From: Xestospongia muta
Taxonomy: Eukaryota; Porifera; Demospongiae; Haplosclerida; Petrosiidae
DNA length: 64,000 bases
Direction: 5' to 3'
Assembly: GCA_963693285.1 (NCBI GenBank)
Contig: OY848918.1
Coordinates: forward strand, 8,373,156-8,437,155
Shown: positions 8,735-58,481 of the stretch, one piece after another
Layout of the letters: each line of letters starts with the position of its first letter
Numbering within the stretch: position 1 is the first letter of the stretch
Position numbers and translations under genes: made by a program
The notes under the pieces: generated by a model
What the model was told of the DNA's origin: nothing
Databases searched by the model: none
What the model saw: the letters and a program-made list of their open reading frames with translations, nothing else

Positions 8735-10608
8735 ATGGAGAGGTATGATACAACAGTTATTTATCTTGTCTTCCTTGTCAGAGGTAAGTGCTATTATGAA
8801 CAAAATGTACAATGCTATAAATATTATTATATGTAGTTTATATAGAAGCTTCAGTTACAAGTCTAGGCTGTAATCATGGAGTATGTCCACAGACACAAGG
8901 AGCAATCACTTGTACAATAACAGGAAGTGTAGCAGCTTGGTATTCTCCTCCATCAGATAGTACTCCCATTGCTACAGTAAGTTCTGGACAAGTTAGTAAT
9001 GTTGATAGTACAGGGTTTACTGCTGCTTTTGTGAGCAATACTTCTGGACTAACAACTAATTTAAGTTTTACTGCTACTACTGCTAAGAATGGAACTCAAG
9101 TAAGGTGTGTTGATTTTATAGATACAAACTCAATGACTTGTACTATTATGATATCAGGTATGTCACTAACAATATCATATATAACTAACATGTACTATCA
9201 TTATAAGGTCCTCCAAGTGATGCTCCTACAGGACTGGGTTTTACAGCACTCACAAACACTTCACTCACTCTCTACTGGTCACCTCCTACTCTTCATCCTA
9301 ACTGTATAGTTAACTTCACTGTTGAGATCAGAACAACCTGTGATAATATATTGATCAGTAATCTTAGTACTGATAGTAATATTACCAGTATTAATGTATC
9401 TACTGGTCTCTCTCAGTCAGTAGAGTATCAGTACAGAGTAGTAGGGTCTGATATTATCAATACATGTACAAAGCTAAGAACAGGAATCAAATTTCATATC
9501 CTATACAATACTTACACAATAAATTAAACATGTCATTTATTTGATACCAAAATGAGCATTGAACTTACCATTAGTTTTAACACATTTAATTTCAGGAGCT
9601 AGTCATCATCCCTTTATATAAGATTCTATAGTTACATCAGGTTTTTATTAATTCCATTATAGTTATCTTTAGATCCCACCTATGATGAAGTAAACAAGAA
9701 ACCATAGCCTTTATCTTTACAATATGACGAAGTGCCTCCTCCAGTGCCTCCTTAATTCACCTGATAATGATCAACCACCTCTAATACCTCTGTTCCATGG
9801 TGGAGATGAACCTCCTGTATCGCAATATAAGGGACCTGTGACAGCTCGATACTCTGAAGTCAAGAGAGAAGATATGGCACCTCATTTACTTGTGCCTCTT
9901 GTGGCGCTTCATGCACTACCTCACACGAGTACAGCAGCTAAAGGAGATTATTCAGTATTAAGGAGAGATGATATATCTAATGTACCACTACATAATTTGA
10001 CAGCTAGAGGAGACTACTCTGTTATAAAGAGAGATGATGTATCTAATGTACCACCTTATAGCACATCAATTGGCCATGGAGGTGACTATTCTATCTTGAA
10101 GAGAGAAGAGAGGGGGATTAGTTAAACATTGGTCAACAATCATAGTCTAATTTACAATATTATTATAGAGTGGTGAAAATAATTCTCAGTTATAACAGAC
10201 TGGTTTGTATTCAACTCTAAATATTGAAGTAAGAGATAATACAGTCCACTATATATCATAAAAATCTTACATCATATTAGATAAACAAACCAATTGAAGC
10301 CAAAGATGAGCCAAGAGGAACTGGAAGTATAATAATATATGCTGAACTAGGTAATATCCCTAAGAATAGACCAATGGCACCTTCTACATCAAATTTAGAG
10401 CAGTCTGTTGTCTACTCTGATATCAAGGTACCAACTGATCCTAATAAGGTATCACAGTCAATACATATTAATGCTGCTATAGTTACCATTCCTTCTTTGT
10501 CACAAGCAGAGGCTTTCTACAAGAGGTGCATTGATACAGGCTCAGTTAGGAGACTTGGAAATTCCTCCACCACGTCCTCCTAAACCTGGTCCCAAACCTG
10601 GTTCTTAA
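8735..10608 (+). pseudogene. Chimeric receptor: class S leader, class L tail, middle lost
   Basis: Exon 1 8735-8783 (MERYDTTVIYLVFLVR), Ig exon 8846-9157, FN3-1 from 9208. FN3-1 runs to about 9463 (RVVGSD), then homology stops. FN3-2, stalk and TM exons are absent, and sequence resumes at tail exon 12 (9663). That exon has a TAG after NKKP and a 1-nt insertion after PPVPP that moves the rest to another frame; downstream it is open to 10125 and shows ARYSEVKRED and three GDYSVxxRxD repeats. Exon 13 (10169-10228) has a TAA; exons 14 (10281-10448; IIIYAEL, SVVYSDI) and 15 (10510-10608; PPPRPPKPGPKPGS) are open. Leader and tail come from different classes, so it is a recombinant, probably dead as a membrane receptor. 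Confidence 0.75.
9955..10125 (+). repeat. Triplicated tyrosine-motif module in tail exon
   Basis: In the frame open to 10125 the tail reads KGDYSVLRRDDISNVP, RGDYSVIKRDDVSNVP and GGDYSILKREERG. Other class L tails have a single EGNYSVLKREE unit. This is an internal expansion of a YxxL/I motif. Confidence 0.75.
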
Positions 10609-10863
10609 AGTAATGGAAGACAGTCAATGGCAATAACCTCCTCCATACATCACCTGTAAAATGAGAACAATATTATAACTCACTGATGGCTTGTATAATG
10701 TTGAATCTGTCACTGTTTAGTTCATTATTTTATTCTGTCAGGTCTTATTATAAGTCATTTTTGTAATTTGGTGTTCATTATAAGACTAGTTATTAATTTA
10801 CCAATTGAGCCCCATATGATCACTTTGTATAATTATAGCAGCTGTCATATTATCATTCATTTA
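10609..10863. other. Spacer with a short repeat A piece
   Basis: 3' flank of the chimeric gene. 10810-10860 matches the start of family A. Nothing else seen. Confidence 0.4.
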
Positions 10864-11280
10864 TGGGACGCCGTAAAACTAAATAGTTGATACATTATTA
10901 ATTTATGGTGAGGATTTATAAATATTACAATAAATATAATAAATATGAGCAAAGGTTTACAAATGCACATGGGAATTTATAGTGATATTAGAGATTTGTA
11001 AAGGTTGCCACAAATTTATATTATAAATTCACATAAGAATTTATAAATACTGTTGAGAAATTATAAAAATTGCTAGGAATTTATAAATACAGTAAGAATT
11101 TATAAATGCAGCAGTTACAAGTCTCTAACATCATTTATAAATTACCACGTGCATTTATAAACCTCAAGTACATTTATAAATCTCTGTTCATATTTATTAT
11201 GTTTATTGTAGTATTTACAAATCCTGAGCAGATAATTAAATATCTATAAACTATTTAGTTTTGACACAAACGATTCCCCA
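10864..11280. mobile_element. MITE-like element with terminal inverted repeats
   Basis: Left end TGGGACGCCGTAAAACTAAA with TAGTT, right end AACTATTTAGTTTTGACACA continuing to CCCCA. The ends pair through AAAACTAAATAGTT / AACTATTTAGTTTT and the outer TGGG/CCCA, with TA on both sides as a possible TA target duplication (Tc1/mariner habit). The interior repeats AATTTATAAAT-like words. There is no ORF and no second copy in the window. Family assignment is tentative. Confidence 0.55.
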
Positions 11281-12856: not shown

Positions 12857-12864
12857 ATATAATA

Positions 12865-16230: not shown

Positions 16231-18215
16231 CTAATTAATATATCCATAAGCAGTATTTTGTTTTAAATCAATGATCTCTTTCTGTTGTGAGTTTTCTGGT
16301 AACTTAATATCATCATATATCAGACCTAATTGGGTAGTAGTAGTGGGTGGAGTGTCTTTATTGTAGCTCCTCCTTCTCATAATGAGATAGAAAATAAGTG
16401 TAGTAATAACAGCAGTTAATAGAGAAGAGAGGAACATACTGACTGGTATACTCCCTGTTAAGTAAATAATTCAGTAATGTAACATGTTTGTATATTACCG
16501 GCTAAACATGAGGTTTGTTGGTTTACATTAGCTGTGATAGACAAGATAATTATAAAAATTTAGTTCTATTATTACTATGTACCTGGACATGTTGAAATAG
16601 TTACAGTTGAAGATACAGTCACTTTCAAAGTAGAAATCATTAAAGAACTTAAATAAATTGTATCTACAATGTAAAAAATATATAATGTTCAATGAGATTA
16701 TATATGACATACTGCTAGTTGACTGTGAAGACATAGTACTTGTTGAAGTTGACAAGGACATGAAAGGACATGTACACGTAGTTGCTATATTCATTATATA
16801 TATATATGTATATATATCATTGAATCAATACTTACATATTCTGTATGAATCACTTGTGATCATTACTGTTGTAGAATATGAGCTATGTAGATTTATCAAT
16901 GATTTTGATACTATTACAGTTTATATAAGTAATATTACCTATTTGTAAATAGTTTTTACCATCATATTTAGAAGATGATATGACAACTCTAGTACTAGTT
17001 ATTATTAATTCCTCATCATTAATGATAACTGTAAGAGAAGTAAACATAACACATTTTATAATAATATTTAAATAACCTATAGTCTTATTAGGGTATCCAT
17101 CTCCTAGTATATTAACTGGTACCACTGTTATAATGTAGGTATATCCAGCTAGTACTCCAGTCAATGTAATGTTAGTAACAGTAGTTATATTAACAGTTAG
17201 TGAACCTGATATGTTGTGATAGACTTTGTAGTACAAGAGAGGAGGACGAAAGGAGAGAGGAGGACACTAAATGAAACTAGAATATTATCAAGTGATTGCT
17301 AATAATATTATACCTCCCAAACAATAAAAATAGTATAGTTCTCTGTGTTGTTTGTAATATTATAAATGATTAATGGTACAGCTTGTAGAACTAGCAAAGC
17401 ACATTACTTAAGATTTAAAAATCATTTGATTCTTACTATCCAAAGTGAACATAGTATATTGACTATAGGGTCCTAATCTGTTGAGAGTATCAGACCCTAC
17501 TACTCTGTACTGGTACTCTACTGACTGAGAGAGATCACTAGATACATTAATACTAGTGATATTACTACCAGTACTAAGACTATTGATCAATATATTATCA
17601 CTGGTTGTCCTCATCTCAACAGTGTAGTTAACTATACAGTTAGGATGAAGAGTAGGAGGTGACCAGTAGAGAGTGACTGAAGTGTTTGTGATAGCTGTAA
17701 ATCCCAGTCCTATAGGAACATCACTTGGAGGACCTTATAATGATAGTACATGTTAGTTATATATGATATTGTTAGTGACATACCTGATATCATAATAGCA
17801 CAAGTCATTGAATTTGTATCTATTACATCAACACATCTGACTTGTGTTCCATTCTTATCAGTAGTGGCAGTAAAACTTAAATTAGTTGTTAGTCCAGAAG
17901 TATTGCTCACAAAAGCAGCAGTAAACCCAGTATTATCAACATTACTAACTTGTTCAGAACTTACTGTAGCAATGGGATTACTATCTGATGGAGGAGTATA
18001 CCAAGCTGCTACAATTCCTGTTATTGTACAAGTGAGTGCTCCTTGTGTCTGTGGACATACTCCATGATTACAGTCTAGACTTGTAACTGAAGCCTCTATA
18101 TAAACTATATATAATGATATTTATAGCATCGTACATTTTGTTCATAATAGCTCAAGATACACTTACCTATGACAAAGAAGAGAAGATAAATAACTGTTGC
18201 ATCATACCTCTCCAT
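16231..18215 (-). CDS. Class S receptor (Ig-FN3-FN3-TM, YDDI tail), intact
   Basis: Ten exons: 18167-18215, 17784-18095, 17437-17733, 17314-17390, 16960-17266, 16836-16910, 16713-16784, 16583-16663, 16499-16531, 16231-16454; total 1527 nt, 508 aa, all phases consistent. Signal peptide MERYDATVIYLLFFVIG (1-17). Ig-like 17-120 (CNHGVCPQTQ, LTCTITG, W, NGTQVRC). FN3-1 121-219 (TLYWSPP, YQYRVVGSD, LGPYSQYTMF). FN3-2 220-320. Ser/Thr-rich stalk 348-434 (STSTSTMSSQSTSS). TM 441-460, then RRR. Tail tyrosines 481 (LIYDDI, fits the ITIM consensus) and 504 (YGYI). Many NxS/T sites. No enzyme domain, so signalling would need SH2-type partners. Role as an immune or self/non-self receptor is inferred from architecture and clustering. 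Confidence 0.87.
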
Positions 18216-20800: not shown

Positions 20801-21470
20801 GGTTGCTACTTTTATTATACATATTACATATAAAGTATAGAGCTTATAGCATTAAGTGTTGTTTATGAAACAATGTTAGTTTGGGATCCAACTCATCTAG
20901 TTTATACATGCTGTCATAACAATAATATGTTATCATAGATAATAAAACTAAACAGTAAATAATGAATTTTCTAAAGAGAAATGATACAAACCTTAATAAA
21001 AATAACCAAGGACAGCCTATAGATATAGTTATTAGCTACAGACTGCTGCTACCACAATAGTCACATAAAAGTTTCCTTGATTAGAAATATGTGTTGTTTA
21101 TTTTATTGTTTGATTGATTACTTGAATGGCTGGATATCATATACATATATAAATAAGTTATAAAGTAAATCACTAAACAAGAAATTTTAATTTTGAAAAG
21201 ATTTGGCTGTTTTATCAGGTGCCTTTGTCAGCAATATTGTGCAAATCTACAGAGATAGAGAGTCCATAAATAAAAAGGAATTGAATAAACAAATAAAGAT
21301 AAGTATATACTTTTAAACATGAGGATAATATGAGGATGAATAGTTAAGCTATATACTAGTACTGGACAAAAGATTAATAGTACATGTACTACATAAACAA
21401 AGAAGAAAAATAATAATGTGCTTTTAAACATGAGAACAATATGAATAGTTGTACTAGACAAAAGATTATA
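20801..21470. other. Spacer with repeat fragments
   Basis: 20820-21060 is the segment found inverted at 950-1190; 21110-21460 is repeat B-linked sequence also at 33100-33260 and 61900-62165. The 77-81 aa minus-strand ORFs here are hydrophobic low-complexity readings of a repeat and are not called. Confidence 0.45.
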
Positions 21471-23136
21471 TTCTGTTATTGGGGCTATTGGAGATATTAC
21501 TGTTTTAATAGTAATTGTTGTAGTACTAGTTCTAACTGTTTATATAATGATTAGAAGACAAAATAAAAGTCAGATTTTCTTATAATTTTTAATACTTTAA
21601 AACTCTCAATATAGATAACAAACCAAGTGGTAGTCCATTAACTGTTTCTCTGAGGTAAGCTCATATATACTAATATTCATTTTAATGAACATACTTTAGA
21701 AATATCAAAGACAATAATGGAGAGGAGGTATAGTATTGTTACTTAAAAGCATGTTAATAGCTAATGAAATAACTGAACATTTATTTATATAACAGTGGGA
21801 TTGATCATAATGGACGCACTATTAGTTTAAGTCAATCAAACTTCAGGAATTAGTTATCATTTCTTAAAATAATTCAAACTTTTAGTAATCCATTATAGTG
21901 AAGTCCACAGTCAAATACAACAACCTTTTTTCATTCCAACCACATCACATAAGAACAATGCCTGTTTGTCATTCAGTCATACAATGTATAGTTCCTAAAC
22001 ATTATTTCACATCTTGATTTTAATGAATTAATAATAATAATTTTAATAGATGAATTAATAATAAAATTAATAATTCATCATAATTAAGGATTCATGAGTT
22101 AGCAAAGTAAAAGGTAGAGTAAATCATGTTGTCAATGATTCAAATTTTATGTCAAATGGATGTGTTTGGTACTGTACCTCTATTTACACCTCACTGCTTT
22201 ACCTTACACCCTATAGTATATTTACACCCCTAAAACAAGAATAAGTATACAATATTTACATCCCATTTTTAACAGTGTAGTCATCATTTCTTAAAATAAT
22301 TCAAACTTTTATTAATCCATTATAGTTATCATTAGAGTCCACCTATGCTGAAGTAAACAAAAAACAACAACATCTATCTCTACAATATGATGAAGTTTCT
22401 CCTCCAGTGCCTCCATTCTCAACTGATAATGAACAACCACCTTCTATACCTCTATTCTATGGATCTTGTTATAATGGACTTGTGACAACTCAATAGTCTG
22501 AAGTCAAGAGAGAACACATGACACCTCATGTACCACCTCATACTGTACAACAGTAGAAGGAGACTACTCCATCTTAAAGAGAGAGGAGAGAGAGGCAAAT
22601 CAGTGAACTATTTATTAATAGACTATCATAGTTAATTTATAGTAATACCTTTATAAAGAGAGGAGAAATCCTTCAACAACAGATTGCAAAAGACACTGGT
22701 TTGTATTCAACTCTAAATAATGAAGTAAGACATAATTAATTCAGTCCATGATAAATATATTAGATAAACAAACTAACTGGAGTTGGAGCTGAGACAAAAG
22801 GAGCTGGAGGTATAATATATGATGAACTAGACAATGCTCCTAAGAACTGACCAATGGCACCTCTTACATCACATTTAGAGCAATCTGTTATCTACTCTGA
22901 TATCAAGGTGTCAGTCAACTGATCACAATAAGGTAACACATGTCATGATATATCATTGTTGCTATAGGTACCATTCTCTTCTTTGTCATTAACAGAGGCT
23001 CTCTACAAGAGGTGCTAAGATACAGGCTCACTTAGGAGAAATGGAGATTTCTCCATCACATCCTCCTAAACTTGGTCCTGAACCAGGTTCACAAGGCAAT
23101 AGAGGACAATCAATTTCCTCCATAAATAACCTCTAA
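21471..23136 (+). pseudogene. Class L TM/tail pseudogene (block copy 1)
   Basis: Only the 3' part: truncated TM exon 21471-21568 (IGAIGDITVLIVIVVVLVLT...IRRQNK), exon 10 21615-21654, exon 11 21700-21727, exon 12 22326-22594, exon 13 22659-22724 (TGLYSTLNNE), exon 14 22764-22932, exon 15 22996-23136. Exon 12 has TAG in place of the Tyr codon in TTQYSEV; exon 14 has TGA after NAPKN; the exon 12 donor is GC. The copy at 62176-63408 shares both stops, so the gene was dead before the block duplicated. Confidence 0.8.
21870..22285. repeat. About 420-bp insertion flanked by a 45-bp direct repeat
   Basis: ATCATTTCTTAAAATAATTC + AAACTTTTAGTAATCCATTATAGT occurs at about 21857-21900 and again at about 22275-22325; copy 2 has it once (62565-62602). 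The intervening DNA is AT-rich with TTAATAATAAT repeats. Looks like a local duplication or insertion inside intron 11. Confidence 0.6.
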
Positions 23137-26451: not shown

Positions 26452-27300
26452 ATGAAAGAGTATGGTACAATATTGATTTGTCTTCTATTACCAGTCATAA
26501 GTGAGTTAATATATAATATTTGTTAGTATGGCTTTATAGTGAACATAGAAGCTTCAGTTATAAGAAATATGAAGAAGTATGCATGACTGGTTTACTTTCT
26601 CTTTTTTTATACATAGGTAGCACAGAAGCTTCAGTTACAAGTCTAGACTGTAATCATGGAGTATGTCCACAGACACAAGGAGCACTCACTTGTACAATAA
26701 CAGGAAGTGTAGCAGTTTGGTATTCTCCTCCATCAGATAGTACTCTCGTTTCTACAGTAAGTTCTGGACAAGTTAGTAATGTTGATAATACTTGGTTTAC
26801 TGCTGCTTTTGTGAGCAATACTTCTGGACTAACAACTAATCTAAGTTTTACTGCCACTACTGATAAGAATGGAACACAAGTCAGGTGTGCTGATTTAATA
26901 GATACAAACTCAAGTACTTGTACTATTATGATATCAGGTATGTCACTAACAGTATCATATATAAATATCATGTACTATCATTATAAGGTCCTCCAAGTGA
27001 GTCTACATTTCATTTAGTTACCTCCTTTCTTGTACTACAAAGTCTATCACAACATATCAGGTTTACTAACTGTTAATATAACTACTGTTACTAACATTAC
27101 ATTGACTGGAGTACTAGCTGGATATATCTACATTATAACAGTGGTACCAAATAATATACTAGGAGATGGATACCCTAATAAGACTATAGGTTATTTAAAT
27201 ATTATTGTAAGTATGTTATGTTTATTTCTCATACAGTTATCATTAATGATGAATCAATGATAATTAGTGTCAACATATTATAGAATATCATAGAAAGACT
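26452..27300 (+). pseudogene. Truncated class L gene: leader, Ig, part of FN3-2
   Basis: Exon 1 26452-26500 (MKEYGTILICLLLPVI), Ig exon 26626-26937 intact. The FN3-1 exon begins at 26988 (GTCCTCCAAGTGAG) but after 14 nt is fused to intron 4/exon 5 sequence (TCTACATTTCATTTAG), removing FN3-1 and FN3-2a. Reading through gives a stop about 60 nt on; exon 5 at 27018 has the wrong phase for exon 2. FN3-2b then shifts frame at IIVSMLC. No TM follows. At best a secreted Ig domain. A TATAAAT lies at 26407-26413. Confidence 0.7.
26548..26625 (+). other. Duplicated Ig-exon acceptor with possible second start
   Basis: AACATAGAAGCTTCAGTTAT appears just upstream of the true acceptor (GTAGCACAG then AAGCTTC). 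Using the first acceptor leads to an early stop after RNMKKY. Between them an ATG (26583) reads MTGLLSLFLYIGSTEASV in frame with the Ig exon, an alternative signal peptide. The same arrangement is at 28112-28189. Confidence 0.5.
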
Positions 27301-28015: not shown

Positions 28016-30951
28016 ATGAAAGAGTGTGGTACAATATTGATTTGTCTTCTATTACCAGTCATAAGTGAGTTAATATATAATATTTGTTAGTATGGCTTTA
28101 TAGTGAACATAGAAGCTTCAGTTACAAGAAATATGAAGAAGTATACATGACTGGTTTACTTTCTCTTTTTTTATACGTAGGTAGCACAGAAGCTTCAGTT
28201 ACAAGTCTAGACTGTAATCATGGAGTATGTCCACAGACACAAGGAGCACTCACTTGTACAATAACAGGAAGTGCAGCAGCTTGGTATTCTCCTCCATCAG
28301 ATGATAATGCCATTGCTACAGTAAGTTCTGGACAAGTTAGTAATAGTAACAGTGAGTTTACTGCTGCTCTTGTGAGTGTTAACAATCCTGGGCTAACAAG
28401 TAATTTAAGTTTTACTGCTACTACTGATAAGAATGGAACACAAGTCAGGTGTGCTGATTTAATAGATACAAACTCAATGACTTGTACTATTATGATATCA
28501 GGTATGTCACTAACAGTATCATATATGACTAACATGTACTATCATTATAAGGTCCTCCTAGTGATGTTCCTACAGGACTGGGTTTTACAGCTCTCACAAA
28601 CACTTCAGTCATTCTCTACTGGTCACCTCCTACTTTTCATCCTAACTGTATAGTTAATTACACTGTTGAGATCAGGACAACCAGTGATAATATATTGATC
28701 GGTAATCTTAGTACTGGTAGTAATATCACCAGTATTAATGTATCTACTGGTCTCTCTCAGTCAGTAGAGTATCAATACAGAGTAGTAGGGTCTGATGGTA
28801 TCAATAGATTAGGACCCTATAGTCAATATACTATGTTCACTTTAGATGGTAAGAGTTAGATTATTTTAGTTCCCTTGAGGAGTGCTAATTTTTAGTTCTA
28901 CAGGCTGTACCACTAATTACTTATAATATCACAAAGAATACAGACAACTACATTATTGTTATAATTTGGGAGGTATGTATTTCTGTTTATAATAACTGAG
29001 TCTAGTTTTTTATTTAGTCTCCTCCACTCTCCATTCATCCTCCTCTCTTGTACTATAAAGTCTATCACAACATATCAGGTTCACTAACTGTTAATATAAC
29101 TACTGTTACTAACATTACATTGACTGGAGTACTAGCTGGATATATCTACATTATAACAGTGGTACCAGTTAATATACTAGGAGATGGATACCCTAATAAG
29201 ACTATAGGTTATTTAAATATTATTATAAAGTATGTTATATTTACTTCTCATACAGTTATCATTCCTAAACAACCAATAATTACTAGTACTAATATTGTAA
29301 CAATATCATCTGAACATTGTAAGAGTGTAACATACAAAATTAATTACATATTATTTGTATTAGTAACACCAGTAAATGTATCTAGTCTCTTTTCAATTAT
29401 AAGTAAGTGAAAAACATTTATTATCACTTATACTTAATGATGAGTATAGACACTTTGGTCCCTTTGATGTCTTTATTACAAAGTGCAACTAAAACAGGTA
29501 CAATAACTTTAAACTCAACAGGTATGTCCTCAAAAATTATTATAATTTAAGTATTACAATATAATGAAATGTCTATATATATGCTCTATTTTTTGTATAG
29601 CAGTTTCTATCTATAGCCTGTCAGGTTCATCTCCTACAAGTAATTTAATCAATCTAATATAACATTGCTATTTGTATTTGACAATAGCAGTAATCACTAC
29701 CACAACATCATCAACATCTGCTGGAATATATTATGTTATTGGGACTGTTGGAGGTATTATTGTTTTCATACTAATTGCTGTAGTACTAGTTTTAACTGGT
29801 TGTATAATGATTAGAAGACAAAATAAAAGTCAGGTGTTCCTATAATTACTTAATCCATTAATACTCTCAATATAGACAACAAAGCAAGTGGTACTCCAGT
29901 AACCATTTCTCTGAGGTAAGCTCATATATACTAATATTCATCTTAATGATTAAACTTTAGAAACATTAAAGACAATAACAGAGAAGAGGTATGATGTTAT
30001 TACTTATATGTACATAGTTAATACCTGCATGAGTAAATAAATGAACATTTATTGATACAAAAATGTGATTGATCATCATGACTCACTATTAGTTTATGTC
30101 AATCTAATTTGGAGTTACTCATCATTTCTTAAAATAATTTGGTCTTTACTATAGTTATCTTCAGACCCCACCTATGATAAAGTAAACAATAAACCACAAC
30201 CTCTATCTCTACAATATGATGAGGTTCCTCCTCCAGTGCCTCCTTATTTAGCTGATAATGACCAGCCACCTCCTGAAACACTGTTCCATTCTGAGGATAA
30301 TCCTTATGTATCCCATTATAATGATGAACCTGTGATAGCTCAGTATTCTGAAGTCAAGAAAGAGCATATAGCACTTCATACAGCTGAAGGAAATTATTCT
30401 GTTTTGAAGAGAGAAGAGAGAGAAGTCAGTTAAATGTAGGTACATAATCACATGACCATATTATTATTGTAGAGCAGAGAGAATAACTCTCAGATACAAA
30501 AGACTGGTTTGTATTCAACTCTAAATAATGAAGTAAGAGATAATACAGTCAACTATATCATAATAACTTACATTATATTAGTTAAAAAAACCAATTGGAG
30601 CCAGAGCTGAGCCAAGAGGAGTTAGAAATATAGTATATGCTGAACTGGGCAATGTCCCTAAGAACAGACCAATGGCACCTCCTCCATCTAATTTAGAGCA
30701 GTCTGTTATCTACTCTGATATCAAAGCACCAACTGATCCTAATAAGGTATCTTATATGATATAACAATGTTGCCATAATCTTCTTTAATTGTCACTAACA
30801 GAGGCTCTCTACAAAAGGTATTATGATACAGGCTCAGTTAGGAGAAATGGAGCTACCTCCACCACGTCCTCCTAATCCTGGTCCCAAACCTGGTTTCCAT
30901 GGCAGTGGAGGCCAGTCAACAACAGTAATTCCCTCTATACATCACCTGTAA
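28016..30951 (+). CDS. Class L receptor (Ig-FN3-FN3-TM, multi-ITIM tail), frameshifted tail
   Basis: Fifteen exons: 28016-28064, 28190-28501, 28552-28848, 28896-28972, 29018-29318, 29364-29402, 29450-29521, 29601-29639, 29688-29828, 29876-29915, 29961-29988, 30156-30424, 30473-30532, 30582-30746, 30802-30951. Signal peptide MKECGTILICLLLPVI, Ig (LTCTITG, NGTQVRC), FN3-1 (SVILYWSPP, YQYRVVGSD), FN3-2 (YYKVYHNISG), short stalk, TM (IGTVGGIIVFILIAVVLVLT, then RRQNK). Exon 12 lacks one base after PTYD relative to 38872-39141, so as given the tail stops at PTYDK before the ITIM-like motifs; the downstream frame still encodes LQYDEVPPPVPP, AQYSEV, GNYSVL, GLYSTL, IVYAEL, VIYSDI and PPPRPPNPGPKP. 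Either a tail-less form, a pseudogene, or a sequencing error. Confidence 0.75.
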
Positions 30952-31114
30952 AATGATTATAACTGACTGCTGACTTATACAATGTTAAATATGTCACTTT
31001 TTTAGTTCATTATTTTATTTTGTCATGTTTTAGATGTCAATAGTTTTTAGCTATTGTTAAACTAGTATCATTTATTTATTAACTATAATATGTTAACTAG
31101 TATTTGTTTACATA
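30952..31114. other. 3' flank
   Basis: Nearly identical to 39666-39829; no polyadenylation signal singled out. Confidence 0.35.
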
Positions 31115-33620: not shown

Positions 33621-34827
33621 AAAACAAGTCAGGTGTGTTGATGCAATAAATATAAACTCAATGACTTGTACTATTATGATATCAGGTGTGTCACTAACAG
33701 TATCATATATAACTAACAATGTACTATCATTATAAGGTCCTTCAAGGATACTCCTACAGGACTGGGTTTTACAGCCTCTCACAAACACTTTAGTCACTCT
33801 CTACTGATCAACTCCTACTCTTCATTCTAACTGTATAGTCAATATACTGCCTTCACCCTCTCCTCTCAGTCACCTCCTATCTCCTCTCATCCTCCTCTCT
33901 TGTACTACAAAGTCTACAACATATCAAGTTCACTAACTGTTAATATAACTACTGTTACTAATATTACATTGACTGGAGTACTAGCTGGATATACCTACAT
34001 TATAACTGTGGTACCAGTTAATATACTAGGAGATGGATACCCTAATAAGACTATAGGTTATTTAAATATTATTATAAAGTGTGTTATGTTTACTTCTAAT
34101 ACAGTTATCATTCCTAAACAACCAATAATCACTAGTGTTGTAATAACATCATTTAATGAAAGTAATCAATGTATTATTTATTAGTAAATGTACTTACTAC
34201 TTTCCCTATTATTGTAGTCATCACAACAAGTGTTGTATTAAATAGTAGTAAGTATAAATATCTATTAATGTATATAGTTTATGATATCTATAGAAACTAT
34301 AATTTCAATGATGTTACTGTCAATTCCAACAAGTATTACATCTTTTTACTTAACTGGTAAGACCTTAAAACCCATTTGAAGAAATAATTATTTATGTTTT
34401 TCACAGACACTTCCTCGAGTTCCTCAGTCATTCAAATTCCTACAGTTAATGTAACATCAACTGTTTGTACATGTTCAAGTAAGTTATAGTCAAAGTGTAA
34501 GTGTACAATTATATTTCTACTGTAGCTAATGACAAACAACAAACATCATGTTTAACAGGTAATAAAACAAACATGTTACATTACTGAATTATTTACTTAA
34601 CAGTGAGTATACCAGTCAGTATGTTCCTCTCTTCTCTATTAACTGCTGTTATTACTACATTTATTGTCTATCTAATTATGAGGAGGAGGAGTTACAATAA
34701 AGACACTCCACCCACTACTACTATCCAATTAGGTCCAATATATGATGATGTTAAGTTACCAGACACTTCAGAACAAAAAGAGATCATTGAATTACAAGGA
34801 AATACTGCTTATGGATATATTAATTAA
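33621..34827 (+). pseudogene. Class S receptor, 5'-truncated
   Basis: Begins in the last 65 bp of an Ig exon (to 33685, with a TAA in it), then FN3-1 from 33737 for about 110 bp, fused near 33850 to the FN3-2b exon. From there exons are clean and phase-consistent: 33870-34161, 34218-34247, 34294-34356, 34407-34478, 34526-34558, 34604-34827. They encode YYKVYNISSSLTV, GDGYPNKTIGYL, a Ser/Thr stalk, TM SMFLSSLLTAVITTFIVYLI, RRRS, PIYDDVKLPD and YGYIN. No start exon is present; it could only be expressed from a foreign first exon. Confidence 0.75.
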
Positions 34828-36794: not shown

Positions 36795-39665
36795 ATGAAA
36801 AAGTTTGCTACAATGTTGATTTGTCTTCTATTACCAGTAATAAGTGAGTTAATATATAATATTTGTCAGTATGACTTTATAGTGAACATAGAAGCTTCAG
36901 TTACAAGACTAGAATGTAATCATGGAGTATGTCCACAGACACAAGGAGCACTCACTTGTACAATAACAGGAAGTGTAGCAGCTTGGTATTCTCCTCCATC
37001 AGATAGTACTCCCATTGCTACAATAAGTTCTGGACAAGTTAGTAATGTTCATAATACTGAGTTTACTGCTGCTTTTGTGAGCAATACTTCTGGACTAACA
37101 ACTAATTTAAGTTTTACTGCCACTACTGATAAGAACGGAACACAAGTCAGGTGTCTTGATGTAACAGATACAAACTCAACGACTTGTACTATTATGATAT
37201 CAGGTATATCATTAACAGTATCATATATAACTAACATGTACTATCATTATAAGGTTCTCCAAGTGATGCTCCTACAGGACTAGAATTTACAGCTCTCACA
37301 AACACTTCAGTCACACTCTACTGGTCACCTCCTACTCTTCATCCTAACTGTATAGTTAACTACACTGTTGAGATCAGGACAACCAGTGATAATATATTGA
37401 TCGGTAATCTTAGTACTGGTAGTAATATCACCAGTATTAATGTATCTACTGGTCTCACTCAGTCAGTAGAGTATCAATACAGAGTAGTAGGATCTGATGG
37501 TATCAATAGATTAGGACCCTATAGTCAATATACTATGTTCACTTTAGATGGTAAGAGTTAGATTATTCTAGATCCCTTGAAGAGTGCTAATTTTTAGTTC
37601 TACAGGCTGTACCACTAATCACTTATAATATCACAAAGAATACAGACAACTACACAATTATTGTAATTTGGGAGGTATGTATTTTTGTTTATAATAACTG
37701 AGTCTAGTTTTTATTTAGTCTCCTCCACTCTCCTCTTGTCCTCCTCTATTGTACTATAAAGTCTATCATAACATATCAAGTTCACTAACTGTTAATATAA
37801 CTACTGTTACTAACATTACATTGACTGGAGTACTAGCTGGATATATCTACATTATAACAGTGGTACCAGTTAATATACTAGGAGATGGATACCCTAATAA
37901 GACTATAGGTTATTTAAATATTATTTTAAAGTATGTTATGTTTACTTCTCATACAGTTATCATTCCTAAACAACCAATAATTACTAGTACTAGTATTGTA
38001 ACAATATCATCTGAACATTGTAAGAGTGTAACATACAAAATTAATTACATATTATTTGTATTAGTAACACCAGTAAATGTATCTAGTCTCTTTTCTACAA
38101 CTGTAAATCATACATAATTTATTAGTAAGTACAAAACATTTATTATCACTATAACTTAATGTTGAATATAGAAACTTTGGTCCCTTTGATGTCTTTATTA
38201 CAAAGTGCAACTAAACAAGTACAATATCTTTAAACTCAACAGGTATGTCCTTAGAAATTATTATAATTTAAGTATTACAATATAATGAAATGTCTATATA
38301 TATACTCTTTTTTTTGTATAGCAGTTTCTATCTATAGCCTGTCAGGTTCATCTCCTACAAGTAATTTAATTAATCTAATATAACATTGCTATTTCTATTT
38401 GACAATAGCAGTAATCACTACCACAACATCATCAACATCTGCTGGAATATATTATACTATTGGGACTGTTGGAGGGATTATTGTTTTTATACTAATTGCT
38501 GTAGTACTAGTTTTAACTGGTTGTATAATGATTAGAAGACAAAATAAAAGTCAGGTGTTCCTATAATTACTTAATCCTTTAATACTCTCAATATAGACAA
38601 CAAAGCAAGTGGTAGTCCAGTAACTGTTTCTCTGAGGTAAGCTCATATATACTAATATTCATCTTAATGATTAAACTTTAGAAACGTTAAAGACAATAAC
38701 AGAGAAGAGGTATGATGATATTATTTATATGTACATAGTTAATACCTGCATGAGTAAATGAACATTTATTGATACAAAAGTTGGATTGATCATCATGACT
38801 CACTATTAGTTTATGTCAATCTAATTTGGAGTTACTCATCATTTCTTAAAATAATTTGGTCATTACTATAGTTATCTTCAGACCCCACCTATGATGAAGT
38901 AAACAAGAAACCACAACCTCTATCTCTACAATATGATGAAGTCCCACCTCCAGTGCCTCCTTATTTAGCTGATAATGACCAACCACCTCCTGAAACACTG
39001 TTCCATTCTGAGGATAATCCTTCTGTACCCCATTATAATGATGAACCTGTGATAGGTCAGTATTCTGAAGTCAAGAGAGAGCATATAGCACTTCATACAG
39101 CTGAAGGAAATTATTCTGTTTTGAAGAGAGAAGAGAGAGAAGTCAGTTAAACATAGGTACAAAATCACATGACCATATTATTGTAGAGCAGAGAGAATAA
39201 TTCTCAGTTACAAAAGACTGGTTTGTATTCAACTCTAAATAATGAAGTAAATGATAATACAGTCAACTATATTATAATAACTTACATTATATTAGTTAAA
39301 AAAACCAATTGGAGCCAGAGCTGAGCCAAGAGGAGTTAGTAATATAGTATATGCAGAACTGGGCAATGTCCCTAAGAACAGACCAATGGCACCTCCTACA
39401 TCAAATTTAGAGCAGTCTGTTATTTACTCTGATATCAAAGCACCAACTGACCCTAATAAGGTATCTTATGTGATATAACAATGTTGCCATAATCTTCTTT
39501 AATTGTCACTAACAGAGACTCTCTACAAAAGGTATTATGATACAGGCTCAGTTAGGAGAAATGGAGCTACCTCCACCACGTCCTCCTAAACCTGGTCCCA
39601 AACCTGGTTTCCATGGCAGTGGAGGCCAGTCAACAACAGTAATTCCCTCTATACATCACCTGTAA
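36795..39665 (+). CDS. Class L receptor, complete tail, damaged stalk exons
   Basis: Exons: 36795-36843, 36892-37203, 37254-37550, 37598-37674, 37719-38019, 38065-38135, 38172-38242, 38322-38360, 38409-38549, 38597-38636, 38682-38709, 38872-39141, 39187-39246, 39296-39460, 39516-39665. Leader MKKFATMLICLLLPVI, Ig, FN3-1, FN3-2, TM (IGTVGGIIVFILIAVVLVLT) as in the sister gene. The tail is intact: PTYDEV, LQYDEVPPPVPP, GQYSEV, GNYSVL, GLYSTL, IVYAEL, VIYSDI, then RLSTKGIMIQAQLGEMELPP and PPRPPKPGPKPG. LQYDEV, IVYAEL and VIYSDI fit [SIVL]xYxx[ILV]. Exon 6 has TAA (38115-38117) and exon 7 lacks one base (71 not 72 nt). Both are phase 1-1, so skipping them restores the frame; if included, the product is truncated before the membrane. 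Confidence 0.75.
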
Positions 39666-39829
39666 AATGATTATAACTGACTGCTGACTTATACAATGTT
39701 AAATATGTCACTTTTTTAGTTCATTATTTTATTTTGTCATGTTTTAGATGTCAATAGTTTTTAGCTATTGTTAAACTAGTATCATTTATTTATTAACTAT
39801 AATATGTTAACTAGTATTTGTTTACATAT
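39666..39829. other. 3' flank
   Basis: Same as 30952-31114. Confidence 0.35.
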
Positions 39830-43601: not shown

Positions 43602-43665
43602 TTCAGGTTCAAAAAAGAAGACATGTCAGTATAGGAACGCAGACTCGTTAGAACTTTAGCTGTCT

Positions 43666-49013: not shown

Positions 49014-50405
49014 ATGGTGAGGTATGACGCAACAGTTGTTTATCTTCTCTTCCTTGTCATAGGTAAGTGTATCTTATGCTGTTATGAACAAAATGTACAA
49101 TGCTATAAATATCGTTATATATAGTTTATATAGAAGCTTCAGTTACAAGTCTAGACTGTAATCATGAAGTATGTCCACAGACACAAGGAGCACTCACTTG
49201 TACAATAACAGGAAGTGTAGCAGCTTGGTATTCTCCTCCATCAGATAGTACTCCCATTGCTACAGTCACTTCTGGACAAGTTAGTAATGTTGATAATACT
49301 GGGTTTACTGCTTCTCTTGTGAGCAATACTTCTGGACTAACAACTATTTTAAGCTTTATTGCCACTACTGATAAGAATGGAACACAAGTCAGTTGTGTTG
49401 ATGTAATAGATACAAACTCAATGACTTGTACTATTATGATATCAGGTATGTCACTAACAATATCATATATAACTAACATGTACTATCATTATAAGGTCCT
49501 GCAAGTGATGTTCCTACAGGACTGGGTTTTACAGCTCTCACAAACATTTCAGTCACTCTCTACTGGTCACCTACTCTTCATCCTAACTGTATAGTTAACT
49601 ACACTGTTGAGATCAGAACAACCAGTGATAATATATTGATCAATAGTCTTAGTACTGGTAGTAATATAACCAGTATTAATGTGTCTACTGGTCTCAATCA
49701 GTCAGTAGAGTATCAATACAGAGTAGTAGGGTCTGATGCTATCAACAGATTAGGACCCTATAGTGAATATACTATGTTCTCTCTGGATGGTAAGAATTAA
49801 TTAGTTTTAATATTATAATAAGTAATGTGCTTTATTAGTTCTAGAAGCTGTACCACTAATCACTTATGCAATTACAAACAACATAGACAGCTATAATATT
49901 TTTATTTTTTGGGAGGTATATTATTTATAATTACTTGAAATATTATTCTAGTTTCATTTAGTCTCCTCCTCTCTCCTCTCGTCCTCCTCTCTTGTACTAC
50001 AAAGTCTATCACAACATATCAGGTTCACTAACTGCTAATATAACTACTGTTACTAACATTACATTGACTGGAGTACTAGTTGGATATACCTACATTATAA
50101 CAGTGGTACCAGTTAATATACTAGGAGATGGATACCCTAATAAGACTATAGGTTATTTAAATATAATTATAAAGTGTGTTATGCTTATTTCTCATATAGT
50201 TATCATTCCTAATGAGGAATCAATAATAACTAGTACTAGAGTTGTCATATCCTCATCTAAATATCATAGTAAGACTATCTACAAATAGGTAATATTACTT
50301 ATATAAACTATAATAGTATCAAAATCATTGATAATTATACATTGTTCATATTCTACAACAGTAATGATCACAAGTGATTCATACAGAATATGTAAGTATT
50401 GATTC

Positions 50406-50440
<35 letters not shown>

Positions 50441-51003
50441 GAATATAGCAACTACATGTACATGTCCTTTCAAGTCTTCATCAACTTCAACAAGTACTAT
50501 GTCTTCACACTCAACTAGCAGTATGTCATATATAATCTCATTGAACATTATCTATTTTTTTACATTGTAGATACAATTTATTTAAGTTCTTTAATGATTT
50601 CTACTTTGAAAGTGACTGTATCTTCAACTGTAACTAATTCAACTTGTCCAGGTACATTATAATAATAGTTAAAGTTTATATAATTCTCTTGCCCATTACA
50701 GCTATTGTAAACCAACAAACATCATGTTTAGCAGGTAATAAAACAAACATGTTACATTAATAAATTATTTACTTAACAGTGAGTATACCAGTCAGTATGT
50801 TCCTCTCTTCTCTATTAACTGCTGTTATTACTACACTTATTGTCTATCTCATTATGAGGAGGAGGAGCTACAATAAAGACACTCCACCCATTACTACTAC
50901 CCAATTAGGTCCAATATATGATGATGTTAAGTTACCAGAGACCTTAGAACAAAAAGAGATCATTGAATTACAAGGAAATACTGCTTATGGATATATTACT
51001 TAG
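49014..51003 (+). CDS. Class S receptor, intact
   Basis: Exons 49014-49062, 49134-49445, 49496-49789, 49839-49915, 49962-50268, 50317-50391, 50449-50520, 50571-50651, 50702-50734, 50780-51003; 1524 nt, 507 aa. Leader MVRYDATVVYLLFLVIG. Ig-like domain with CNHEVCPQTQ and NGTQVSC. FN3-1 lacks one Pro codon (YWSPTLHP). FN3-2 YYKVYHNISGSLTANITTVT. Stalk TTCTCPFKSSSTSTSTMSS. TM about 440-459, then MRRRS. Tail GPIYDDVKLPETLEQKEIIE with Tyr480, and Tyr503 in YGYIT (terminal Thr instead of Asn). An (AT)n tract lies in intron 6. Acts at the cell surface by inference; partners unknown. Confidence 0.88.
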
Positions 51004-51731: not shown

Positions 51732-52990
51732 ATGAAAAAGTATAGTATAATATTGATTTGTCTTCTCTTACCAGTCATAAGTGAGTCAATATATTATAAC
51801 ACAATATTTGTAATTTATTTCTTATGGTTTATATAGAAGCTTCAGTTATAAGTCTAGACTGTAATCATGGAGTATGTCCACAGACACAAGGAGCACTCAC
51901 TTGTACAATAACAGGAAGTAGAGCATATTGGTATTCTCTTCCATTTGCTACAGTAAGTTCTGGACAAATAAATAATAATAATACTGTGTTTACTGCTGCT
52001 CTTGTGAGTGTTAATAAACCTGGACTAACAACTAATTTAAGTTTTATTGCCACTACTGATAAGAATGGAACACAAGTCAGGTGTGTTGATGTAGTAGATA
52101 CAAACTCAATGATTTGTTATGATGTTATGTATGTCGTTAACAATATCATATATAACTAACATGTACTATCAATATAAGGTCCTCCAAGTGATGCTCCTAC
52201 AGGACTGGTTGTTACAGGTCACACAACCATTTAGTCATCTTTACTGGTCACCTCCTACTCTTCATCCTAACTGTATAGTTAACTACACTGTTGAGATCAT
52301 GACAACCAGTGATAATATATTGATCAGTAATCTTAATACTAGTAGTAATGTCAGCTGGATTTATCTACATTATAAGAGTGGTACCAGTTAATATACTAGG
52401 AGATGGATACCCTAATAAGACTATAGGTTATTTAAATATTATTATAAAATATGTTATGTTTACTTCTCATACAGTTATCATTCCTGATGAGGAACCAATA
52501 ATTACTAGTACTAGTATTGTAACAATATCATCTGAACATTGTAAAAGTGTTCAATATAACATAAAAAATTAATTACATATCATTTGTATTAGTAACACCA
52601 GTAAATGTAACTAGTCTCTTTTCTACAACTGTAAGTGATACATCAATTATTAGTAAGTGTAAAACATTTATTATCACTTACTTAATGATGAGTATAGAAA
52701 CTTTGGTCCCTTTGATGTCTTTATTACAAAGTGCAACTAAAACAAGTACAATATCTTTAAACTCAACAGGTATGTCCTTAGAAATTATTATAATTTAAGT
52801 ATTACAATATAATGAAATGTCTATTTCTATTTGACAATAGCAGTAATCTCTACCACAACATCAATAACATCTACTGAAATGTATTATGTTATTGGGACTG
52901 TTGGAAGTATTATTGTTTTCATACTAATTACTGTAGTACTAGTTCTAACTGGTTGTATAATGATTAGAAGACAAAATAAAAGTCAGGTGT
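51732..52990 (+). pseudogene. Class L receptor with chimeric FN3 and no tail
   Basis: Exon 1 51732-51780 (MKKYSIILICLLLPVI), Ig exon from 51837. The Ig exon end is damaged (MICYDVMY; the usual TMTCTIMISG and donor phase are lost), and the next exon, from 52179, has a frameshift with TAG. FN3-1 is cut at about 52352 and joined inside FN3-2b (SSNVSWIYLHYKSGTS in one frame), making one hybrid FN3. Exon 6 52593-52652 and exon 7 52698-52769 are intact, exon 8 is deleted, TM exon 52841-52981 is intact (IGTVGSIIVFILITVVLVLT). The tail is gone: homology ends at about 53015 where the segmental duplication starts. Confidence 0.75.
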
Positions 52991-54202: not shown

Positions 54203-54429
54203 CTAATTGATTAGCTTATTTAATAAATAATATTGAAGAGGAGGTTCATACATTATTGGATCATCTTGGATAAGCACTATGAGGACACTTCTGGATACCA
54301 AAAGACTAGGGGAAGGAGGTTCAAGAAGGGAGATATGAGCCTTAGAGATGTTGCTGAGAGATCTTGATGATATATTGATGCTACATTCTGTGCCTGTGCT
54401 ATTATGTAGGTATGATGCAATTGTCATCC
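54203..54429 (-). CDS. Unidentified conserved terminal exon (copy 2)
   Basis: Counterpart of 13831-14057: same length, open, with G4A, L5S, K22R, D61E and P64L differences. Begins MTIASYLHNSTGTECSINIS and ends YYLLNKLIN. Function not recognised. Confidence 0.4.
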
Positions 54430-56481: not shown

Positions 56482-57043
56482 CTAATTAATATATCCATAA
56501 GCAGTATTTTCTTTTAAATCAATGATCTCTTTTTGTTGTGAGTTTTCTGGTAACTTAATATTATCATATATTGGACCTAATTGGGTAGTAGTAGTGGATG
56601 GAGTGTCTTTATTGTAGCTCCTCCTTCTCATAATGAGATAGAAAATAAGTGTAGTAATAATAGCAGTTAATAGAGAAGAGAGGAACATACTGACTGGTAT
56701 ACTCACTGTTAAGTAAATAATTCAGTAATGTAACATGTTTGTATATTACCGGCTAAACATGAGGTTTGTTGGTTTACATTAGCTGTGATAGACAAGATAA
56801 TTATAAAAATTTTAGTTCTATTATTACTATGTACCTGGACATGTTGAAGTAGTTACAGTTGAAGATACAGTCACTTTCAAAGTAGAAATCATTAAAGAAC
56901 TTAAATAAATTGTATCTACAATGTAAAAAATAGATAGTGTTCAATGAGATTATATATGACATACTGCTAGTTGACTGTGAAGACATAGTACTTGTTGAAG
57001 TTGACAAGGACTTGAAAGGACATGTATACGTAGTCGCTATATT

Positions 57044-57083
<40 letters not shown>

Positions 57084-58481
57084 TTGAATCAATACTTACA
57101 TATTCTGGATGAATCACTTGTGATCATTACCTTTGTAGAATATGAACTATGCAGATTTATCAATGATATTGATACTATTACATTTTATATAAGTAATATT
57201 ACCTATTTGTAAATAGTCTTACCATCATATTTAGAAGATGATATGACAACTCTAGTACTAGTTATTATTAATTCCTCATCATTAATGATAACTGTAAGAG
57301 AAGTAAACATAACACATTTGATTATAATATTTAAATAACCTATAGTCTTATTAGGGTATCCATCTCCTAGTATATTAACTGCTACCACTGTTATAATGTA
57401 GGTATATCTAGCTAGTCCTCCAGTCAATGTAATGTTAGTAACAGTAGTTATATTAACAGTTAGTGAACCTGATATGTTGTGATAGACTTTGTAGTACAAG
57501 AGAGGAGGATAAGAGGAGAGAGGAGGACACTAAATGAAACTAGAATATTATCAAGTGATTGCTAATAATATTATACCTCCCAAACAATAAAAATATTATA
57601 GTTCTCTGTGTTGTTTGTAATATTATAAATGATTAATGGTACAGCTTGTAGAACTAGCAAAGCACATTACTTAAGATTTAAAAATCATTTGATTCTTACT
57701 ATCCAAAGTGAACATAGTATATTGATTATAGGGTCCTAATCTGTTGAGAGTATCAGACCCTACTACTCTGTACTGATACTCTATTGACTGAGAGAGACCA
57801 CTAGATACATTAATACTGGTGATATTACTACCAGTACTAAGACTACTGATCAATATATTATCACTGGTTGTCCTCATCTCAACAGTGTAGTTAACTATGC
57901 AGTTAGGATGAAGAGTAGGAGGTGACCAGTAGAGAGTAACTGAAGTGTTTGTGAGAGCTGTAAATCCCAGTCCTGTAGGAACATCACTTGGAGGACCTTA
58001 TAATGATAGTACATGTTAGTTATATATGATATTGTTAGTGACATACCTGATATCATAATAGTACAAGTCATTGAGTTTGTATCTATTACATCAGCACATC
58101 TGACTTGTGTTCCATTCTTATCAGTAGTGGCAGTAAAACTTAAATTAGTTGTTAGTCCAGAAGTATTGCTCACAAAAGCAGCAGTAAACCCAGTATTATC
58201 AACATTACTAACTAGTCTAGAGGTTGTTACTATAGCAATGGGATTACTATCTGATGGAGGAGTATACCAAGCTGCTACAATTCCTGTTATTGTACAAGTG
58301 AGTGCTCCTTGTGTCTGTGGACATACTCCATGATTACAGTCTAGACTTGTAACTGAAGCTTCTATATAAACTATATATAATGATATTTATAGCATCGTAC
58401 ATTTTGTTCATAATAGTTCAAGATACACTTACCTATGACAAAGAAGAGAAGATAAATAACTGTTGCATCATGCCTCTCCAT
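56482..58481 (-). CDS. Class S receptor, intact (copy 2)
   Basis: Exons 58433-58481, 58047-58361, 57700-57996, 57577-57653, 57223-57529, 57100-57174, 56965-57036, 56835-56915, 56750-56782, 56482-56705; 1530 nt, 509 aa. Leader MERHDATVIYLLFFVIG. The Ig exon is one codon longer than its twin (TIVTTSRLVSN region). FN3-2b has LARYTYIITVVAVN in place of LAGYTYIITVVPVN. Tail GPIYDNIKLPE (Tyr482) and YGYIN (Tyr505). The twin at 16231-18215 reads LIYDDI, so the membrane-proximal tyrosine context differs between two otherwise near-identical genes. Intron 6 carries an (AT)n tract. Confidence 0.87.

What the first reader, a model, noticed from the sequence alone, without database searches (positions are those of the whole stretch)
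8735..58481. Clustered receptor family with one ectodomain type and two alternative signalling tails
At least eight partial or full genes share nearly identical Ig-FN3-FN3 exons but carry either a short YDDV/YGYI tail (class S) or a long multi-tyrosine tail (class L). This is the layout of paired inhibitory/activating immune receptors known in vertebrates, here in what looks like a sponge-like genome. Seen directly: exon structure, tails, clustering. Inferred: an immune or allorecognition role.
Basis: partly seen in the sequence, partly recalled or inferred. Interest (0 to 1): 0.92.

Follow-up and report, generated by a model that had tools for sequence, protein, structure and literature searches.

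The report
Huge receptor cluster with paired tails
An animal genome, probably a sponge's, carries a large cluster of cell-surface receptors in which a shared outer part is joined to either of two quite different signalling tails, much like the paired immune receptors of vertebrates.

Summary
The window lies in a cluster of about 1.4 Mb on one chromosome-size contig. Of 111 main-type Ig exons picked there, 48 lead into a short tail (S) and 52 into a long tail (L). S and L genes share only a cassette of about 1.15 kb (Ig, FN3, FN3; 88-89% DNA identity); promoter, signal peptide, stalk, membrane segment and tail are class-specific. In a tree of 19 units the shared part sorts by chromosomal neighbourhood, not by tail (AU test against L as one clade, p 0.002), as gene conversion would leave it. 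The Ig exon is modelled as a V-set domain. The L tail keeps two ITIMs (21 of 21 and 22 of 22 copies), 25 residues apart in 18 of 18. The S tail keeps an NTxYxxI motif in 30 of 31. The genome encodes an SHP2-like phosphatase. Not supported: a classical activating arm (no ITAM, no charged membrane residue) and 'one ectodomain type' (several exist cluster-wide). Immune or allorecognition use is inferred; no transcript was available.

The parts
28016..30960 (+). Complete L-class gene: signal peptide exon 28016-28063, Ig 28189-28503, FN3-1 28551-28847, FN3-2 28904-28972 + 29018-29227, membrane exon 29687-29833, juxtamembrane 29878-29916, tail exons T1 30161-30430, T2 30482-30547, T3 30585-30746 (two ITIMs), T4 from 30807 (end approximate)
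36795..39690 (+). Complete L-class gene: signal peptide 36795-36842, Ig 36891-37205, FN3-1 37253-37549, FN3-2 37606-37674 + 37719-37928, membrane exon 38408-38554, T1 38878-39147, T2 39196-39261, T3 39299-39460 (IVYAEL, VIYSDI), T4 from 39518 (end approximate)
49014..51003 (+). Complete S-class gene: own signal peptide exon from 49014 (MVRYDATVVYLLFLVI), Ig 49133-49447, FN3-1 49495-49788, FN3-2 49847-49915 + 49962-50171, stalk exons within 50481-50736, membrane+tail exon 50779-51000 (PIYDDV, TAYGYI)
16237..18215 (-). Complete S-class gene, minus strand (Ig 17782-18096, FN3-1 17438-17734, FN3-2, stalk, membrane+tail 16237-16452)
56488..58481 (-). Complete S-class gene, minus strand (Ig 58045-58362, FN3-1 57701-57997, FN3-2, stalk, membrane+tail 56488-56706); 5' end set by homology with the S gene at 49014
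8845..10580 (+). Truncated L-class gene: Ig, incomplete FN3-1, T1 in two pieces, T2, T3 (IIYAEL, VVYSDI), T4; no FN3-2 or membrane exon found
26452..27209 (+). Partial gene: L-type signal peptide, Ig, FN3-2 second half, no tail
51732..52986 (+). Partial gene: L-type signal peptide, Ig (1-99), part of FN3-1, L membrane exon
33625..34821 (+). Partial unit: Ig and FN3-1 fragments, FN3-2, S membrane+tail exon 34603-34821
21466..23066 (+). Orphan L membrane exon and tail exons without ectodomain
62171..63338 (+). Orphan L membrane exon (split) and tail exons without ectodomain
109..324 (+). Orphan S membrane+tail exon
6007..6225 (+). Orphan S membrane+tail exon
49120..50274 (+). Shared ectodomain cassette in this S gene: the stretch (-12 to +1142 from Ig exon start) that aligns with the L gene at 36891 (88.4% identity); sequence on both sides is class-specific

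Best explanation
This is a tandem cluster of single-pass membrane receptors: signal peptide, V-set Ig domain, two FN3 domains, stalk, membrane helix, tail. One ligand-binding cassette is used by two gene classes. L genes end in a long tail with up to seven YxxPhi tyrosine motifs, including two ITIMs 25 residues apart. When these are phosphorylated they would dock the two SH2 domains of an SHP2-type phosphatase and send an inhibitory signal. S genes end in a short tail with a conserved NTxYxxI (switch-motif-like) tyrosine and give a different output, competing for the same ligands. Local gene conversion keeps the ectodomains of both classes alike while parts of the Ig vary. Shown: the exon structures, the shared cassette, the phylogenetic mixing, the V-set fold (as a model), the motif conservation, the presence of SHP-type phosphatase genes. 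Inferred: gene conversion as the cause of the mixing, expression, splicing, phosphorylation, SHP docking, the different output of S, and use in self/non-self or microbe recognition.
Against: No transcript or protein evidence. S has no ITAM and no charged membrane residue, so it is not a classical activating partner. The S-tail YxxPhi count alone is not above chance (p 0.18). dN/dS is 1.45 in the L membrane exon (10 copies), 0.85 in T1 (7 window-region copies) and 0.87 in FN3-2 (window region), which also fits relaxed constraint. For the short FN3-2 exon the AU test does not reject one L clade (p 0.13, 25 rows), and only one inner branch of the Ig+FN3-1 tree is well supported. Many copies are broken. 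ITIM conservation is partly due to the youth of copies; some orphan T3 exons keep the motifs too, and rows were found with a profile of the same exon.
Confidence: 0.6

Rival explanations
1. Both classes are inhibitory or modulatory receptors; there is no activating arm. S is a short ITSM-type variant, L a long ITIM type, differing in strength or in cell type through their separate promoters.
For: S tails carry NTxYxxI in 30 of 31 copies, with a second tyrosine 17-23 residues before it, no ITAM and no charged membrane residue. Upstream sequence and signal peptide are class-specific too.
Against: Two tail classes in nearly equal numbers on one mixed ectodomain are easier to understand if outputs differ. 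S lacks a strict ITIM in the gene tested.
Confidence: 0.35
2. A clonal-identity (allorecognition) locus: homophilic or paired V-set recognition between individuals, as proposed for Hydractinia Alr and the Botryllus fuhc receptors.
For: V-set domain; dN/dS 1.6-1.7 in Ig loops BC, CC' and FG, but 0.83 in C'-D and 0.68 elsewhere (partition partly chosen after seeing the variability); ITIM-type motifs also reported for Alr and FcoR (PMC12065747, passages).
Against: No polymorphism data; one assembly only. Hits on other long contigs in the protein search cannot be read as alleles, because that database is clustered at 90%. Strands against loops as a whole show no excess in loops (1.05 against 0.86).
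Confidence: 0.35
3. Recognition of microbes or symbionts: germline-diversified Ig receptors that bind bacterial surfaces, with ITIM brakes.
For: High copy number, several Ig variants on one FN3 backbone (e and f on type a), fast Ig evolution. Paired CEACAMs in mammals are discussed as part of defence against bacterial pathogens (PMC2832619, passages).
Against: No ligand or expression evidence.
Confidence: 0.3
4. Adhesion or developmental receptors whose tandem array expanded by unequal crossing-over; the two-tail pattern is a by-product of recombination, not of a shared ligand.
For: Many orphan tails and truncated genes, one chimera with L-type 5' part and S tail (Ig at C2:8450189), S tails joined to several ectodomain types.
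Against: Cassette borders lie close to the ends of the ectodomain exons and both flanks stay class-specific. FN3-1 and S-tail exons are under constraint. The two-tail pattern occurs on ectodomain types a and b.
Confidence: 0.15

Closest known systems
Mammalian CEACAM1/CEACAM3-type paired receptors (PMC2832619, passages read); Siglec-11/16 (PMC5701461, start of abstract seen)
   Same: IgSF genes in families, ectodomain kept alike by gene conversion across genes with different cytoplasmic exons, ITIM-bearing class.
   Different: Two FN3 domains follow the V domain here; upstream sequence, signal peptide, stalk and membrane exon also differ between classes; no ITAM-type partner; about 50 genes per class. 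No sequence kinship shown.
Hydractinia Alr family (as described in PMC12065747 and PMC11999971, passages)
   Same: Large clustered IgSF family in a non-bilaterian with V-set domains and ITIM/ITAM-type motifs.
   Different: [quoted passage not shown] here one Ig domain and two FN3. Alr sequences were not compared.
Botryllus fester co-receptors (FcoR; PMC12065747, passages)
   Same: Variable-type Ig domain, type I membrane protein, tails with ITIM, hemITAM or core YxxPhi motif, multigene family.
   Different: FcoRs have sushi and C2 Ig domains; there the ITIM/hemITAM choice is partly by alternative splicing at some loci, here by separate genes.
PD-1 (ITIM Y223 and ITSM Y248; PMC7078208, start of abstract seen)
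   Same: Tyrosine spacing of 25 equals that of the two L-class ITIMs; TxYxxI of the S tail fits the ITSM consensus (recalled).
   Different: Convergent motif arrangement only; no homology shown.
Sponge aggregation factors (Grice et al. 2017, as cited in PMC12065747; paper itself not read)
   Same: Same question: how sponges tell self from non-self.
   Different: Recalled as extracellular proteoglycan-type molecules; the present genes encode single-pass receptors with tyrosine motifs.

Membership tests
Paired activating/inhibitory immune receptors | Clustered genes with highly similar ectodomains and different cytoplasmic tails | tested here: met
Paired activating/inhibitory immune receptors | Ectodomains mixed across the two tail classes (as by gene conversion) | tested here: met
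   (19 units; AU p 0.00175 on Ig+FN3-1; not rejected for FN3-2 alone, 25 rows, p 0.13)
Paired activating/inhibitory immune receptors | One class bears ITIMs | tested here: met
   (motif level only)
Paired activating/inhibitory immune receptors | Other class signals activation through an ITAM or a charged membrane residue that binds an ITAM adaptor | tested here: not met
   no charged residue in the membrane stretch of 31 S copies, tyrosines 17-23 apart. Non-classical activation stays open
Paired activating/inhibitory immune receptors | Both classes bind the same ligand and give opposite outputs in the same cells | not testable with these tools
   needs expression and binding data
Ig superfamily, V-set | V-type Ig sandwich with B-F cysteines and C-strand tryptophan | tested here: met
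   (C88 invariant, C23 in 90% or more of 39 rows; type d lacks the tryptophan); the PDB is rich in antibodies, and Pfam Ig models are weak
FN3 domain proteins | Matches to PF00041 above cut-off for both domains | tested here: inconclusive
   FN3-1 37.2 bits; FN3-2 alone 22.6-22.9 bits, below the cut-off of 25
ITIM receptors acting through SHP phosphatases | Tandem ITIMs at a spacing two SH2 domains can bridge | tested here: met
   spacing 25 in 18 of 18
ITIM receptors acting through SHP phosphatases | An SHP-type phosphatase in the genome | tested here: met
ITIM receptors acting through SHP phosphatases | Phosphorylation-dependent SHP recruitment | not testable with these tools
   needs biochemistry
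Hydractinia Alr family | V-set plus I-set Ig domains in one ectodomain | tested here: not met
   one Ig exon per unit followed by FN3 exons
Hydractinia Alr family | Sequence kinship with Alr proteins | not tested
   no Alr sequence was held
Botryllus FcoR family | Sushi and C2 Ig domains between V domain and membrane | tested here: not met
   FN3 instead
Ig-domain receptor tyrosine kinases | Cytoplasmic kinase domain | tested here: not met
   no Pfam family at E 0.1 in the 229-residue conceptual L tail; the S tail is 48 residues

The most novel reading that the evidence does not exclude
A sponge has independently evolved a paired-receptor system for self/non-self or microbe recognition. About a hundred germline V-set receptors share a gene-converted ligand-binding cassette between an ITIM class that recruits an SHP2 orthologue and a short switch-motif class. 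This would place the ITIM/SHP logic of immune recognition at the base of animals, beside unrelated receptors in cnidarians, ascidians and vertebrates.
Probability: 0.45. Interest if true: 0.95.

Novelty: new variant of a known kind. Interest (0 to 1): 0.86.

Why it matters
A review seen here (PMC12065747, passages) says that candidate allorecognition proteins of sponges, cnidarians and ascidians are not conserved, and that ITIM/ITAM signalling is the common thread from cnidarians to mammals. For sponges it cites work on aggregation factors. A sponge cluster with a V-set ectodomain, conserved tandem ITIMs, a second tail class on the same ectodomain and an SHP2-like gene would extend that thread to the base of animals, and would give sponge self/non-self recognition a concrete, testable receptor locus. 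The design (cassette mixed across classes, everything else class-specific) is what selection for one ligand set with two outputs would leave. Eight of nine literature searches bore on this (one search was on PD-1/SHP-2). None of the listed titles or abstract starts describes such a family in a sponge; several searches list only the best 10 to 15 of 35 to 944 papers, and the library lacks most subscription journals.

Tried and rejected
Activating arm for S: rejected as classical (no ITAM, no charged membrane residue). Reading copies on other long contigs in the protein search as alleles: not possible, because that database is clustered at 90% identity and only the best 120 of 180 were listed. 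Naming the species: COX1 with TGA=W found on C28, but no named reference to compare. A profile search of solved structures with the Ig alignment (16 sequences at E up to 1, best 0.004) and Pfam (PF00047 in 2 and Ig_3 in 4 of 39 members, no better represented than unrelated families) gave only weak Ig hits; the fold model carries the point. Tail exon T4 has two possible acceptors giving two frames; the frame with a proline-rich end is open in the diverged copy at C2:7554 kb, but it is not settled. The exact stalk exons were not settled. At two junctions the site I first marked is not kept in all ten L genes (membrane-exon donor without GT in 3, T1 acceptor without AG in 2); a GT and an AG a few bases upstream are kept in all ten and are probably the real sites. 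Splitting Ig sites by strand against loop alone showed no excess in loops; the partition by named loops was partly chosen after seeing the variability. Counts rest on rows picked by eye (111 of 150 Ig, 112 of 150 S, 83 of 104 T1 rows): Ig and S mostly near-full, T1 including partial ones; shorter matches and those outside the cluster were dropped.
Full report
WHERE IT LIES. The window is C2:8373156-8437155 of a genome of 158 Mb in 28 contigs; window G+C is about 29%. The genome's mitochondrial COX1 reads TGA as tryptophan. The size, the code and the look of the COX1 protein fit a sponge (recalled), but no species was identified. I held the window plus 40 kb to its right (L029-L032), 8 kb further right (L033) and 200 kb from the left end of the cluster (L009-L028).

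THE OBSERVATION. Exon-wise tblastn shows in the window seven full Ig exons, one nearly full one and several fragments. Each complete unit runs signal peptide, Ig, FN3-1, FN3-2 (split over two exons), then one of two endings. Ending S is a stalk in small exons and a single exon that holds the membrane helix and a 48-residue tail (...PIYDDV...NTAYGYIT). Ending L is a separate membrane exon, short juxtamembrane exons and tail exons T1 to T4. Two L genes and three S genes in the window look complete (for the S gene at 58 kb the first exon is placed by homology only); the rest are truncated genes and orphan tails.

SCALE. Searching the whole genome, 148 of 150 listed Ig matches, 148 of 150 listed S matches, 103 of 104 T1 matches and 93 of 95 T3 matches fall in C2:7.37-8.75 Mb. 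For Ig and S only 150 of 272 and of 222 candidates were scored, so these are lower bounds. I picked 111 Ig matches by eye, most of them near-full. The next element on the same strand within 6 kb is an L tail for 52, an S tail for 48, another Ig for 6 and nothing for 5. Median distance from Ig start to tail is 1562 for S and 1991 for L.

THE SHARED CASSETTE. Twelve pairs among eleven genes were compared. The four S-L pairs without the chimera align from 12 nt before the Ig exon (in one pair in two pieces) to 1124-1158 nt after its start, at 87.8-89.4% identity including introns; beyond that only short scattered pieces match. S-S and L-L pairs align through the gene at 89.7-96.7%, apart from one L-L upstream piece at 81%. 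The chimera (Ig at C2:8450189) has an S tail but matches L genes for about 190 nt upstream of the Ig exon too; its FN3-2 is cut. Even the first exon differs by class: S genes start MVRYDATVVYLLFLVI or similar (two genes read), L genes MKKFATMLICLLLPVI or similar.

GENE CONVERSION. In a tree of Ig+FN3-1 exons of 19 type-a units (9 S, 10 L) the tail label needs 6 changes, as in shuffled labels (mean 6.6; 223 of 500 as low for L, 208 for S). Forcing L into one clade is rejected (AU p 0.00175). The label 'which part of the cluster' needs 2 changes, and 0 of 500 shuffles do as well; one clade for the left part is not rejected (p 0.17). Only one of 16 inner branches is well supported, and on the short FN3-2 exon (25 rows) one L clade is not rejected (p 0.13). 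The pattern is what gene conversion between neighbours, regardless of tail, would leave; conversion itself was not tested by another method.

MORE THAN ONE ECTODOMAIN. Iterated profiles on the held DNA give 71 units with two or more modules. Mean identities between types a, b, c and d are 16-31% in Ig, 25-33% in FN3-1 and 20-40% in FN3-2. Type a occurs with S (8) and L (9) as full sets. Type b occurs with a diverged S-b tail (6) and with L (2, one lacking a full FN3-1). Type c occurs with the common S tail (3, plus 2 without Ig; 3 more without a tail). Six S units have other Ig variants (e, f, g), five of them on the type-a FN3 pair. So both tails recur on two ectodomain lineages, and 'one ectodomain type' holds only locally.

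SELECTION. Nei-Gojobori dN/dS: Ig type a 0.95 (23 copies; 1.05 in the window region), type c 1.14, types b and d 0.56 and 0.64; FN3-1 type a 0.50; FN3-2 type a 0.63 (0.87 in the window region); S tail type a 0.43, S-b 0.70; T1 0.61 (0.85 in the window region); L membrane exon 1.45 (10 copies). In the Ig of type a, loops BC, CC' and FG reach 1.64-1.69, the C'-D stretch 0.83, the four together 1.27, the rest 0.68; all strands together 1.05, all loops 0.86. The partition by named loops was partly post hoc. Constraint on FN3-1 and the S tail argues for working proteins. The values near or above 1 could be diversification or relaxed constraint.

THE TAILS. The 186-residue conceptual L tail (without T4) has seven YxxPhi motifs against 1.58 expected by shuffling (p 5e-5) and three strict ITIMs against 0.42 (p 0.006). 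The two ITIMs in T3 are kept in 21 of 21 and 22 of 22 rows that cover them (25 rows in all, found by profile, some of them orphan exons) and are 25 residues apart in 18 of 18 rows that cover both. GT is kept after T1, T2 and T3 in all ten L genes aligned, so the stop after T1 is probably spliced out; this needs RNA. The S tail has two YxxPhi motifs (not above chance, p 0.18), but NTxYxxI occurs in 30 of 31 full copies, including the S-b tails that are on average 36% identical to S-a. Its two tyrosines are 23 apart in 24 of 31 copies and 17-22 in the others. No S copy has a charged residue within its membrane stretch of 25-26 residues. No Pfam domain is found in the conceptual L tail.

PARTNERS. 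SH2 and PTP matches coincide at C5:8741-8743 kb, at three neighbouring places at C3:11956-11962 kb and, in pieces, at C8:8077-8079 kb. The C5 ORF (SH2-SH2-PTP) matches PTPN11 (SHP2) chains of the PDB best, at E 1.2e-196. The first C3 ORF has the same domains; the other two and the C8 place were not fetched.

READING. The best-supported explanation is a two-class receptor system with a common ligand cassette; L inhibits through SHP, S gives another output. What S does, what is bound and in which cells is not known. It works like vertebrate paired receptors, but I do not file it as one: the activating feature was tested and not met. Closest in design are CEACAM and Siglec pairs, Hydractinia Alr and Botryllus FcoR. 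No sequence kinship with any of them was shown or tested, and the domain sets differ.

Noticed in passing
C2:9.41-9.70 Mb, C11:3.76-3.99 Mb, C12:0.98-1.33 Mb, C7:0.31-0.72 Mb: Large arrays of protein tyrosine phosphatase exons, on C7, C11 and C12 overlapping or beside fn3 exons: possible expansions of receptor phosphatases.
   Followed up: no
C3:11956215-11961741: Three neighbouring SH2-SH2-PTP places beside the one at C5; the first reads VQCSNGVGRTG where the C5 gene reads VHCSAGIGRTG, so its catalytic motif may be altered.
   Followed up: partly
C2:8508027-8508847; C2:8563624-8564444; C2:8302175-8302562: Places where L tail exons and an S membrane+tail exon follow each other within about 0.8 kb or less, as if one gene had both endings; the S exon has a stop inside in the first two.
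   Followed up: no
window 13834-14103 (-) and 54206-54475 (-): Two near-identical 90-residue ORFs downstream of S genes on the minus strand, with tyrosines near the end (MYDPPPQYY / MYEPPLQYY) and no Pfam family above cut-off: possibly a third tail or a relic.
   Followed up: partly
window 43312-44862: ORFs on both strands not matched by the receptor exons, without a Pfam family above cut-off.
   Followed up: partly
C8:6.53-6.58 Mb and C6:0.115-0.238 Mb: Clusters of SH2-domain matches in long open frames, possibly expanded kinases or adaptors that could read such tails.
   Followed up: no
C1:509671, C1:33166668, C2:14850334-14852530: Isolated relatives outside the cluster: an S tail, an Ig exon, and an Ig exon with L tail pieces.
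   Followed up: no
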